Source: Phormidium pseudopriestleyi FRX01
Lineage (GTDB): Bacteria; Cyanobacteriota; Cyanobacteriia; Cyanobacteriales; Laspinemataceae
Assembly (NCBI RefSeq): GCF_017313335.1
Contig: NZ_JAFLQW010000516.1
Location: forward strand, 1-34,095
DNA length: 34,095 bases
Reading direction: 5' to 3'
Shown: positions 1-3,351 of the stretch, piece by piece
Numbering within the stretch: the first letter of the stretch is position 1
Layout: each line of letters starts with the position of its first letter
Notes under the pieces: generated by a model
What the model saw: the letters and a program-made list of their open reading frames with translations, nothing else
Databases searched by the model: none
Told to the model about the DNA's origin: nothing
Program-made: the position numbers and the translations under genes

Positions 1-112
1 AGTCTACAATTTTGGCTCTACCTTCCTTGATTAATATCCTCGCTTTTCGGGGGGTGGTCGGCATTAAGGCTCGACCGAGTTGATTGATGACGCAAACTTT
101 GGGTTGATTCAT
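1..112 (-). CDS. IscB-type RRXRR-domain protein, N-terminal fragment (cut by window edge)
   Basis: The minus strand opens with ATG at 112-110 and stays open for 37 codons to the window edge. The visible peptide begins MNQPKVCVINQLGRALMP and continues with TTPRKARILIKEGRAKIV. This is the pattern of the RRXRR/PLMP domain at the N-terminus of IscB-type RNA-guided HNH endonucleases, where 'PLMP...KAR.LL..GKA.V' is the usual signature. The RuvC and HNH domains would lie outside the window, so IscB, IsrB (no HNH) and a decayed copy cannot be told apart. Stops lie in frame just upstream of the ATG, so this is the true N-terminus. No clear Shine-Dalgarno precedes it. The hairpin-rich stretch about 180 bases upstream fits the omega RNA that accompanies this family. 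Confidence 0.7.
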   Translation of the reverse strand, partial: MNQPKVCVINQLGRALMPTTPRKARILIKEGRAKIVD

Positions 113-289
113 GTAATTAAACTAGATAGAGTTCATCAGCTTTCGCTGTTGTTTTCTTCGCCAATGTTTACTCAGGTTTTAAAACTGCAACACTTCTTTT
201 CTGCCAGAGAAGATGTTTAATTACAGTTCGCAGTGTCCAGAACTAGAAAACGGATTGTCAATCCTAAATTCTGAAGTGCCTATGTATTC

Positions 290-485
290 TGAGGAAACGT
301 AGTATCCCTGACATGACGGGATACTGAGGCGTCGGACGTACTTCTTGATTAATTAAGAAGCCCACACCATACTGTACTCAGTTGGTGTGTGGAGTCGTCA
401 CGGTCACCAAACCGTAGAGGCTGATGCAACCCATCCCTAGGTTCGTGAGTAGGGGTCATTCTGAATGTACACCACTCAACACGAT
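290..485 (-). ncRNA. candidate omega RNA / HEARO RNA upstream of the IscB-like gene
   Basis: Five hairpins sit close together upstream of, and on the same strand as, the IscB-like gene. Plus-strand stems are 301-308/318-325 (8 bp, perfect), 341-346/355-360 (6 bp), 363-369/383-389 (7 bp), 400-404/411-415 (5 bp) and 435-439/450-454 (5 bp). HEARO (HNH endonuclease-associated RNA and ORF) RNAs are known to be compact structured RNAs just 5' of IscB genes, with the guide at the RNA 5' end. The guide would therefore lie at higher plus-strand coordinates, beyond about 485. The boundaries are estimates. I have not matched the sequence to a covariance model, so the identity rests on position, strand and stem density. 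Confidence 0.55.
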
Positions 486-855
486 CCCGAGGGGTTAGGG
501 GTTAGGGATGATACATCACTCGCCTCATGAACCCTGGTAGATTTGCCCCTTGAGTTGCATCCTGATGGAAAAATTGTTGAGGGCGATCGCTCGTCGGATG
601 GGTCGGAATTATTCGGAATAATGACGATATTCTACTGGCAACCGTCGGATCCTGCATGAGAAAATTCACTGATTCTGAATGGGGGTCCTTCGTTCCAGTT
701 TCAGTCAGCGTTTCCTTGGACCGAAATTTCCCGTCTTAAACTGTCCCCGTTGGACGGATATTTTTGGCCCTAACAAACCCAGCTTCTAGTTCTCCCCGAC
801 ACAATTGGTTTGGTGAATGCGGTGAAAGGTTAACGGAAGGTTGAGCCGATCGCGG
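486..855. other. gap between candidate omega RNA and histidine kinase gene
   Basis: I see no convincing coding frame here. The part nearest the RNA has a short telomere-like tandem (two GGGGTTA units plus GGG, 491-507) and would include the guide and the outer end of the IscB element if that reading is right. One HIP1 octamer lies near 583. The rest is downstream of the minus-strand kinase gene, and no clear terminator hairpin was found. Confidence 0.4.
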
Positions 856-3351
856 CTAGATTGAGTCTTTGGAAATCACGGGTAATTCAATAATGAATTC
901 ACATCCCCCTTTGAGTAGATTTTCAAAAGTCAAGCGGCCATGATGTCGGTCTACGATAATTTTATAGGCGATCGATAAGCCTAATCCTTTGCCACTCCCC
1001 ACAGGTTTGGTGGTAAAAAACGGATCGAAAATTTTGGTTTGATGTTGGGGGAGAATGCCACATCCGGTATCCAGAATCCGAATTTGCACCCACTCTCCCG
1101 TAGGGAGGTAACGGGTTTCACTGGGAAGGAGAGTATCCACGGGGAGATCAGCTTGAGCAATCACTGTAGTGGTGATGGTAATTTGCCGATCGCCCAAATG
1201 ATTCAAGGGGAAATTCGCCCCATTTTCCCCCCGATCAGGCAGTCCAATGGCATCGATCGCATTGGAAAACAAATTCATAAACACCTGATTAAGTTGTCCC
1301 GGATAGCAACATAATCGGGGAATATTTTCATAGCATTTAATCACCTCGATATCATGGAGACGATGGGCCAATAAAATCAGGCTACTATCAATCCCTTCAT
1401 GAAGATTAACCCATTTGAATTCAGCTTCATCTAATCGGGAAAAGTTGCGTAAAGTCAAAACAATTTCACGGACCCGTTCAGATCCTTCTTTCATGGAGTG
1501 AAGGATTTTTGTTAAATCGGTCTGAATAAAATTGATATCGATTTCCGCTTCAAATTCAGCAATGGATTGGGGAACGGGGTTCACATGTTCACGATAACGC
1601 TCTAGGAGTTCTATAATCTCGTGGCTGTAATTAGCAATGTGAGGAAGATTGCCATAAATGAAATTAATCGGATTATTAATTTCATGGGCAACACCGGCAA
1701 CCAATTGACCTAAGCTAGACATTTTTTCGCTTTGAACCAGTTGGAATTGAGTGTCATGAAGGGAAGCAATTAATTCAGTTTTTTCATCCAGGGCTTTTTT
1801 AAGTTGTTTAGCTTGCGATCGCGCTTGACGAGCTTGGTCCTGAGTGCGTTGATATAACTGAGCCTGAGCAATCGCAATTCCTAGGTGTAAGGAAATCGAT
1901 TCCATCGCTGAAACTTCATCTTCATGCCAATCGTAAGATTGGGGTTTGATTGCCGAAACATGACCTAATAAAGTTTCTCTGTGCCATATCGGAATACTTA
2001 ATAAACTGCCAATTTGAAGTTGTTGAAACAGGAGATGATCTCGTTCTCCAAAATCTGAATTTTGAGTATTGGAGATAGCCGTAACTTCTTGGCCGAGTAA
2101 ACTTTGAATCAACCCCGACTCAAACTGAAATAGCTTAATTTCTATTCCTACACCCAGAGGATGTTCATCCAGGGAACTCGATTGATTGGGACGACAGACT
2201 CGGTGAGTAATTCGCAGCGATCGACAGAGGTGGTGGATGCTTTCTATTAAAGAAGTCGGTGTGGAAAACAAGATTAAATCGGCTTGAGTGAGGGTTAACA
2301 ACTCAGATAAGGCCGTCTCAATCGTGCGATCGAGATTTAAAGAGGTCCGAATTCGTCCGGCGATTCGGTTCAGAACTTGTTCCCGTTGGGCGTGTTTTTT
2401 GGCTTGGATATAATGCCTGACATTCCCTAGGGCAACTGCTGCCTGTTGTGCTACCATTTCAGCAAATTTCAGTTCGGACGGGTTCCACAAATGACAAACC
2501 CCGGTGTAACTCAGATAAACCGTGGCGATCGCTTCATTTTGGGAGAGGATTGGCACCATCAATGTAGACTGGAACCCGGAACAATGCAGCAGCAAGCGCT
2601 CTACCTCGGGCATCACTGCCGTTTCTGTATCCCCCACCACCCAAGGACTTTTCTGCGATCGCAAAGTATTCCACTCTTTCAATCCCTCCACTCGCAACGG
2701 GACTCTAATTTCCCGATGGCGCCGGGGTGACTCTGGGGATGCCTCCAAGGGATGATAAACCGCCATCTCCATCAAGGTTTGTTCCTGGAAATCATGGAGG
2801 ATTAAACCCGCAGAGTCTGCCTCAAAGACATCACACATTTCCTGCACGATCGCCTCATAAATCTCCGTTTCATCCAAGGACCCATGAATTGCTTTGGCGA
2901 TCGCATTTAAACGCTGTGGCGATAAAACTTGTTCTCCCTCCCCTGGGGGTTGTTCACGGCGATCGCGATTTTTTTCAGAGAGATTTCTATGCGCTTGTGG
3001 GGATTTCCCTGTTCCAGGAATTGCCGTTAAGGATTGAAAATTTTCGGCTTCACCGTGTTCCTCACCGGCTATATTTTTATTCACATAGACAGAGGTAGAA
3101 ATCTCCTCCCAGGAGGATTGTCTTTTTTCACAACACAGTTGCTTGACTTTAGCAACTGTCCCTCGGTCAATGTGGCCTAAAAACTCCAAACAATCCAGCC
3201 AACCGGCAGTCCAGGCGGCATTTTCAGCCTCGTTACTCCCTAGGTGCAAGTGGGTTGGTCGCCCCAGGAGTTCGGCGATCGCCACTCGTCGTGATGTTCG
3301 GTTCGCAGAACCGACCTCATGGGGGTCAAACGGAAAAATATCTGCATTCAT
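856..3351 (-). CDS. soluble GAF-GAF sensor histidine kinase
   Basis: This 831-residue protein has the full histidine-kinase core at its C-terminus. The H-box is around His556 (VAHEINNPINFI), the N-box around 688-702 (NQVFMNLFSNAIDAI), the G1 box is DTGCGI at 761-766, the F-box is FDPFF at 775-779, and the G2 box is GSGKGLGLS at 785-793. Two GAF-like sensory domains precede it, roughly residues 150-310 and 325-500, followed by a coiled linker at about 500-545. There are no transmembrane segments, so it should act in the cytoplasm and may sense a ligand or chromophore through GAF. I see no GAF chromophore Cys that I would trust. The first 140 residues are not recognised and include a charged low-complexity stretch. 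No receiver domain or adjacent response-regulator gene exists, so the partner is unknown. The start is the first ATG of the frame. Confidence 0.9.
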   Translation of the reverse strand: MNADIFPFDPHEVGSANRTSRRVAIAELLGRPTHLHLGSNEAENAAWTAGWLDCLEFLGHIDRGTVAKVKQLCCEKRQSSWEEISTSVYVNKNIAGEEHGEAENFQSLTAIPGTGKSPQAHRNLSEKNRDRREQPPGEGEQVLSPQRLNAIAKAIHGSLDETEIYEAIVQEMCDVFEADSAGLILHDFQEQTLMEMAVYHPLEASPESPRRHREIRVPLRVEGLKEWNTLRSQKSPWVVGDTETAVMPEVERLLLHCSGFQSTLMVPILSQNEAIATVYLSYTGVCHLWNPSELKFAEMVAQQAAVALGNVRHYIQAKKHAQREQVLNRIAGRIRTSLNLDRTIETALSELLTLTQADLILFSTPTSLIESIHHLCRSLRITHRVCRPNQSSSLDEHPLGVGIEIKLFQFESGLIQSLLGQEVTAISNTQNSDFGERDHLLFQQLQIGSLLSIPIWHRETLLGHVSAIKPQSYDWHEDEVSAMESISLHLGIAIAQAQLYQRTQDQARQARSQAKQLKKALDEKTELIASLHDTQFQLVQSEKMSSLGQLVAGVAHEINNPINFIYGNLPHIANYSHEIIELLERYREHVNPVPQSIAEFEAEIDINFIQTDLTKILHSMKEGSERVREIVLTLRNFSRLDEAEFKWVNLHEGIDSSLILLAHRLHDIEVIKCYENIPRLCCYPGQLNQVFMNLFSNAIDAIGLPDRGENGANFPLNHLGDRQITITTTVIAQADLPVDTLLPSETRYLPTGEWVQIRILDTGCGILPQHQTKIFDPFFTTKPVGSGKGLGLSIAYKIIVDRHHGRLTFENLLKGGCEFIIELPVISKDSI

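What the first reader, a model, noticed from the sequence alone, without database searches (positions are those of the whole stretch)
1..485. IscB-type RNA-guided nuclease locus at the window edge with a candidate omega RNA
A 37-codon RRXRR/PLMP N-terminus on the minus strand is preceded by about 165 bases holding five hairpins on the same strand. This is the arrangement known for IscB and its omega/HEARO RNA. The nuclease body is outside the window, so it could be active IscB, HNH-less IsrB, or a relic.
Basis: partly seen in the sequence, partly recalled or inferred. Interest (0 to 1): 0.62.

Follow-up and report, generated by a model that had tools for sequence, protein, structure and literature searches.

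The report
IscB element edge with guide RNA
The window begins inside a known type of bacterial jumping gene that carries a small RNA-guided DNA-cutting enzyme (IscB, the presumed ancestor of Cas9) and its guide RNA; related genomes still hold the same spot without the insertion, so the element's exact edge, its guide and its likely recognition motif (CTAAA) can be read directly.

Summary
Window 2-112 (-) is the 37-codon start of an IscB, cut by the contig edge. Window 146-401 (-) is a complete ωRNA scaffold (HEARO, RF02033, 80 bits, E 2.3e-16, just under the 83-bit gathering score). In seven congeners the same site is empty, and homology begins exactly at base 402 (406 in one). So the element edge is ωRNA base 1, the guide is host DNA (402-417), and six clean empty sites read guide|CTAAAA. 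Congener flanks located the element's other end on contig C182. It holds a matching subterminal hairpin and, in frame, NVSKVQPLLRRGGVCEVIN*, the C-terminus of ~445-aa cyanobacterial IscBs with HNH. Only the nuclease middle (~1.2 kb) is missing from the assembly. The genome carries at least 22 HEARO RNAs of two types. Empty sites for 19 give CTAAA for the window type (8 of 9) and ATGA for the other (7 of 10). Six are complete 475-535 bp elements without an IscB. This is a well-resolved new member of the IscB/OMEGA group of IS200/IS605 elements. HNH-less IsrB is unlikely but not excluded. Cleavage, expression and mobility were not tested.

The parts
1..401 (-). ωRNA-side (in IS605 terms, right-end) part of an IscB-carrying IS200/IS605-type element; continues beyond the contig edge, its other end on contig C182:8571-8874
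   Evidence: Congener homology begins exactly at 402 in six genomes and at 406 in a seventh; the other flank and element end are on C182
2..112 (-). First 37 codons of IscB (PLMP domain, MNQPKVCVINQLGRALMPTTPRKARILIKEGRAKIVD), open at the contig edge
   Evidence: Pfam RRXRR 28.8 bits; guided_IscB positions 1-31; up to 75% identical to cyanobacterial IscBs
146..401 (-). ωRNA (HEARO) scaffold, 256 nt
   Evidence: RF02033 80 bits, E 2.3e-16, full model; compensatory changes in 19 of 35 pairs
402..417 (-). Guide segment (16 nt, CTACGGTTTGGTGACC), host DNA abutting the element
   Evidence: Lies directly 5' of ωRNA base 1; its homologue in six congeners is followed by CTAAAA
361..392 (+). Subterminal hairpin (CCCACACCATACTGTACTCAGTTGGTGTGTGG), also the 5' stem of the ωRNA; resembles the hairpin at the far end of the element
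   Evidence: Folding of both tips with DNA parameters
402..855 (.). Host intergenic DNA, conserved in congeners; insertion site between a histidine kinase and a response-regulator gene
   Evidence: 81-86% identity in seven congeners; genes

Best explanation
This is one end of an IS200/IS605-type element that carries an ωRNA and an IscB RNA-guided endonuclease, inserted between a two-component kinase gene and a regulator gene of a cyanobacterium. Shown by sequence: the element sits exactly between a host 16-mer and the motif CTAAAA. Transcription across the element's edge would place that host 16-mer as the guide at the 5' end of the ωRNA. Inferred: a Y1 transposase acting in trans excises the element as single-stranded DNA and reseals guide and CTAAAA. 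The ωRNA-IscB complex then recognises guide plus CTAAA on the element-free chromosome and cuts it, and repair from a sister copy restores the element. The occupied site is safe because the base after the guide is the element (GTGAC), not CTAAA. Small elements lacking IscB in the same genome could be kept the same way by an IscB supplied in trans.
For: HEARO hit covering the whole model and RRXRR N-terminus. Exact empty sites in congeners. The other end, on C182, adjoins the same CTAAAA and encodes NVSKVQPLLRRGGVCEVIN*, matching L126 NVSKVQPIKKRSGLC and L122 ALSKVKPLKRRGGICEQQT. Relatives have HEARO directly upstream of IscBs of about 445 residues, and the two tested have RRXRR and HNH. Eight of nine window-type empty sites start CTAAA, against 0.0014 per position in the window. 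OrufIscB recognises NTAAA (PMC13180657). Both tips carry matching hairpins with a bulged base, as in IS200/IS605 ends (own knowledge). A Y1 transposase gene is present in the genome.
Against: About 1.2 kb of the nuclease gene is missing, so RuvC and HNH residues of this copy are unseen and it could be a relic. HEARO scores 3 bits under Rfam's gathering score. No transposase is linked to the element. No expression, cleavage or excision data. C327's empty site does not read CTAAA in congeners, and C27 and C44 read CTCAA in one congener each.
Confidence: 0.85

Rival explanations
1. The element encodes an HNH-less IsrB that only nicks the non-target strand.
For: Among solved structures the 37-residue N-terminus is closest to DtIsrB (25.8 bits vs 19 for OgeuIscB). 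The middle that would hold HNH is missing.
Against: The nearest cyanobacterial relatives of the N-terminus (up to 75% identical) that were tested have HNH. The C-terminus matches those IscBs. The tested IsrBs use NTG-type motifs (PMC9581776), not CTAAA. Scaffold is 256 nt, against roughly 300 nt for the DtIsrB ωRNA.
Confidence: 0.06
2. The locus is a decayed relic: the ωRNA persists but the IscB gene is broken.
For: Most HEARO copies in this genome have no IscB beside them, and C309 has an IscB start that breaks after about 17 codons. The middle is unseen.
Against: Start and end of the frame are intact. C182 and C376 carry 99% identical far ends that stop at the same base, suggesting a recent repeat whose shared middle was lost in assembly rather than in evolution.
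Confidence: 0.2
3. The insertion is a domesticated riboregulator of the neighbouring two-component genes rather than a mobile element.
For: It lies about 70 bp upstream of a response-regulator start, on the same strand.
Against: All seven congeners with the site lack it. At least 18 further copies stand at unrelated sites with the same edge rule.
Confidence: 0.03

Closest known systems
OMEGA IscB-ωRNA systems (OgeuIscB, OrufIscB)
   Same: ωRNA directly 5' of the nuclease gene, guide at the ωRNA 5' end, PLMP N-terminus; inferred CTAAA fits the NTAAA of OrufIscB
   Different: Cyanobacterial lineage, at most 75% identical to its nearest N-termini; motif read from empty sites, not from an assay; nuclease middle unseen
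HEARO RNA, RF02033
   Same: Full-length model match, same position upstream of the ORF
   Different: 3 bits below gathering score; longer internal hairpins (256 nt vs 211 model positions)
IsrB (DtIsrB, 8dmb)
   Same: Closest solved N-terminus
   Different: HNH-bearing relatives and CTAAA rather than NTG-type motif
IS200/IS605 elements with TnpB
   Same: Asymmetric ends with hairpins, no target duplication, motif next to one end and guide next to the other
   Different: Guide at the 5' end of the ωRNA and a Cas9-like nuclease; no linked tnpA

Membership tests
IscB (OMEGA) | PLMP/RRXRR N-terminal domain | tested here: met
   28.8 bits vs cut-off 25, positions 1-31 of 174
IscB (OMEGA) | RuvC I-III, bridge helix and HNH | not testable with these tools
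   Middle of the gene absent from the assembly; relatives have RRXRR and HNH
IscB (OMEGA) | C-terminal region of IscB type | tested here: met
   C182 end reads NVSKVQPLLRRGGVCEVIN*, matching L126 and L122; only 19 residues
IscB (OMEGA) | ωRNA immediately upstream, same strand | tested here: met
   HEARO 401-146, 80 bits, E 2.3e-16; below the 83-bit gathering score
IscB (OMEGA) | Guide is host DNA abutting the element, with a target-adjacent motif restored on excision | tested here: met
   Empty sites in congeners read guide|CTAAAA
IscB (OMEGA) | RNA-guided cleavage | not testable with these tools
   Needs biochemistry
IS200/IS605 superfamily | Subterminal hairpins at both ends, no target-site duplication, fixed motif at one end | tested here: met
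IS200/IS605 superfamily | Y1 transposase | tested here: inconclusive
   None linked; one full-length Y1 gene elsewhere, C155
IsrB | RuvC without HNH | tested here: inconclusive
   Region missing; tested relatives have HNH

The most novel reading that the evidence does not exclude
One cyanobacterial genome hosts two separate IscB-ωRNA families (CTAAA and ATGA motifs), each serving a set of roughly 480-bp elements that carry only a guide RNA. Those elements would be retained at their sites by nucleases supplied in trans from one or a few full-length copies.
Probability: 0.45. Interest if true: 0.5.

Novelty: new member of a known kind. Interest (0 to 1): 0.36.

Why it matters
Empty sites in congeners let guide and target-adjacent motif be read from genomes alone. 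They give a prediction (guide plus CTAAA for one type, ATGA for the other) that can be tested with two purified complexes from one host. The many ωRNA-only elements make it possible to ask whether an RNA-guided nuclease maintains non-autonomous relatives in trans.

Tried and rejected
Rfam at gathering threshold gave no hit; the relaxed scan did. BLAST against plasmids and phages found nothing. A class-wide search with the 37-residue N-terminus at E <= 1e-6 found only the window itself; that limit was too strict for so short a query, so the negative is not informative. IsrB was considered because of the PDB ranking and set aside. The missing IscB middle was sought in the genome with a full-length relative and not found. 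The original papers on HEARO and on IscB/ωRNA are not in the paper library, so what is said of them rests on memory.

Full report
What is in the window. The window starts at the edge of contig C305 of a 678-contig assembly. On the minus strand, 2-112 is an open frame of 37 codons running off the contig. It matches the start of Pfam RRXRR and of NCBIfam guided_IscB. Upstream of it, 401-146 (-) matches the whole HEARO/ωRNA model with 80 bits and E 2.3e-16, 3 bits below the curated threshold. An alignment with 14 further copies and relatives shows compensatory changes in 19 of 35 predicted pairs.

The exact edge. Seven genomes of the same genus contain the neighbouring host DNA at 81-86% identity but not the element. 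In six of them homology starts at base 402 and in one at 406. Base 401 is therefore the last base of the element and the first of the ωRNA scaffold. The 16 bases next to it, read on the minus strand (CTACGGTTTGGTGACC), are host DNA and in guide position. In the six congeners with a clean junction the sequence following the guide is CTAAAA. The seventh (L044) has local tandem repeats and no clean junction.

The other end of the element. The congener flank beyond the insertion was used to search the own genome and hit contig C182. There the host flank runs to ...GGTTTTTAG, then 304 bases of element follow up to the contig end. On the ωRNA strand this stretch opens in frame with NVSKVQPLLRRGGVCEVIN and a stop. 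The last residues of cyanobacterial IscBs read NVSKVQPIKKRSGLC (L126) and ALSKVKPLKRRGGICEQQT (L122). So both ends of one IscB gene are in hand and about 1.2 kb between them is missing. A second contig, C376, carries a 99% identical far end that stops at the same base and adjoins CTAAAT. The likely reason for the gap is that the middle is a repeat that was collapsed and lost as a short contig; this is inference. A search with a full-length relative found no other piece of it.

Relatives. A scan of genome contigs with the N-terminus gave 53 loci. The cyanobacterial ones are up to 75% identical, and the intact ones encode about 441-459 residues from the match. The two tested carry RRXRR and HNH above cut-off. 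HEARO sits directly upstream in all eleven loci examined, L126 being weakest at 40.9 bits. One relative, L122, matches the solved IscB structures at E about 1e-36. In Symploca the sequence after the far tip is CTAAA, CTAAT or CTGAA in three copies.

The genome as a whole. HEARO hits number 19, and five more contigs begin inside a window-type copy, while RRXRR is found only twice: in the window and in C556, which has HNH but is cut by its contig end. For 22 copies the guide-side flanks were searched in the seven congeners. Empty sites were recovered for 19, with the junction at the scaffold start or within three bases of it. Window-type copies read CTAAA in eight of nine (C27 and C44 in one of two congeners each; C327 differs in congeners but has CTAAAA at its own far edge). 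The other type reads ATGA in seven of ten, with C295 GTGA, C542 ATTA and C556 GTGG. CTAAA occurs at 0.0014 per position in the window, so eight by chance would have probability about 2e-23 if independent. Six copies are complete elements of 475-535 bp between both edges and contain no IscB: C244, C100, C338, C90, C327, C255.

Mechanism. Both tips of the window element fold into similar hairpins with a bulged base, and most of the small elements show hairpins at both tips too. On the opposite strand the far tip follows TTTAG, the complement of the motif, which is how IS200/IS605 transposases choose sites (established knowledge). Excision would rejoin guide and CTAAAA and expose the site to the ωRNA-IscB complex. 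Guide-dependent cutting of the emptied site followed by repair from a sister copy is the model put forward for this group (own knowledge); here it is inferred. The motif fits OrufIscB (NTAAA, PMC13180657), and the purines at positions 3 and 4 fit OgeuIscB (NNRR, PMC9640706). DtIsrB uses NTGA and other tested IsrBs NTG or NTGG (PMC9581776), which speaks against IsrB for the window type.

Limits. Catalytic residues of this copy are unseen, no transposase is linked (one full-length Y1 gene, C155), and nothing was tested for expression or activity. From memory, ωRNA-only loci and ATGA/GTGA insertion sites of HEARO elements in a cyanobacterium have been described before; those papers were not available. 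The finding is therefore filed as a well-resolved new member of a known kind.

Noticed in passing
window 402-3351 and L052:3-2927: The insertion lies between a GAF/HisKA histidine kinase (856-3351 -) and a response-regulator/hybrid kinase whose ATG is about 70 bp downstream on the same strand, so it may affect that gene's expression.
   Followed up: partly
L052:3068-3213 (C182): The noncoding far part of the window element contains an interspersed repeat with dozens of copies elsewhere in the genome (58 matches to the 304-bp query).
   Followed up: no
L021 (C309:5806-6036): A canonical-type ωRNA is followed by an IscB start (MSNYALVIDTNKQPLSR) that breaks off after about 17 codons, a truncated IscB relic.
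   Followed up: partly
L103 (G005:C146) and G002:C1:6070139, 5903306: Congeners carry 417-421-residue frames that match only the RRXRR part of the IscB model (positions 3-157), possibly HNH-less IsrB.
   Followed up: no
L122:92-2202: In Microcoleus sp. FACHB-61 the related IscB-ωRNA element stands next to an array of about 19 tRNA genes on the opposite strand.
   Followed up: no
C27:951-1209 (L002): A 93% identical copy of the window ωRNA ends at the scaffold's 3' end with no recognisable far tip, perhaps a partial deletion.
   Followed up: partly
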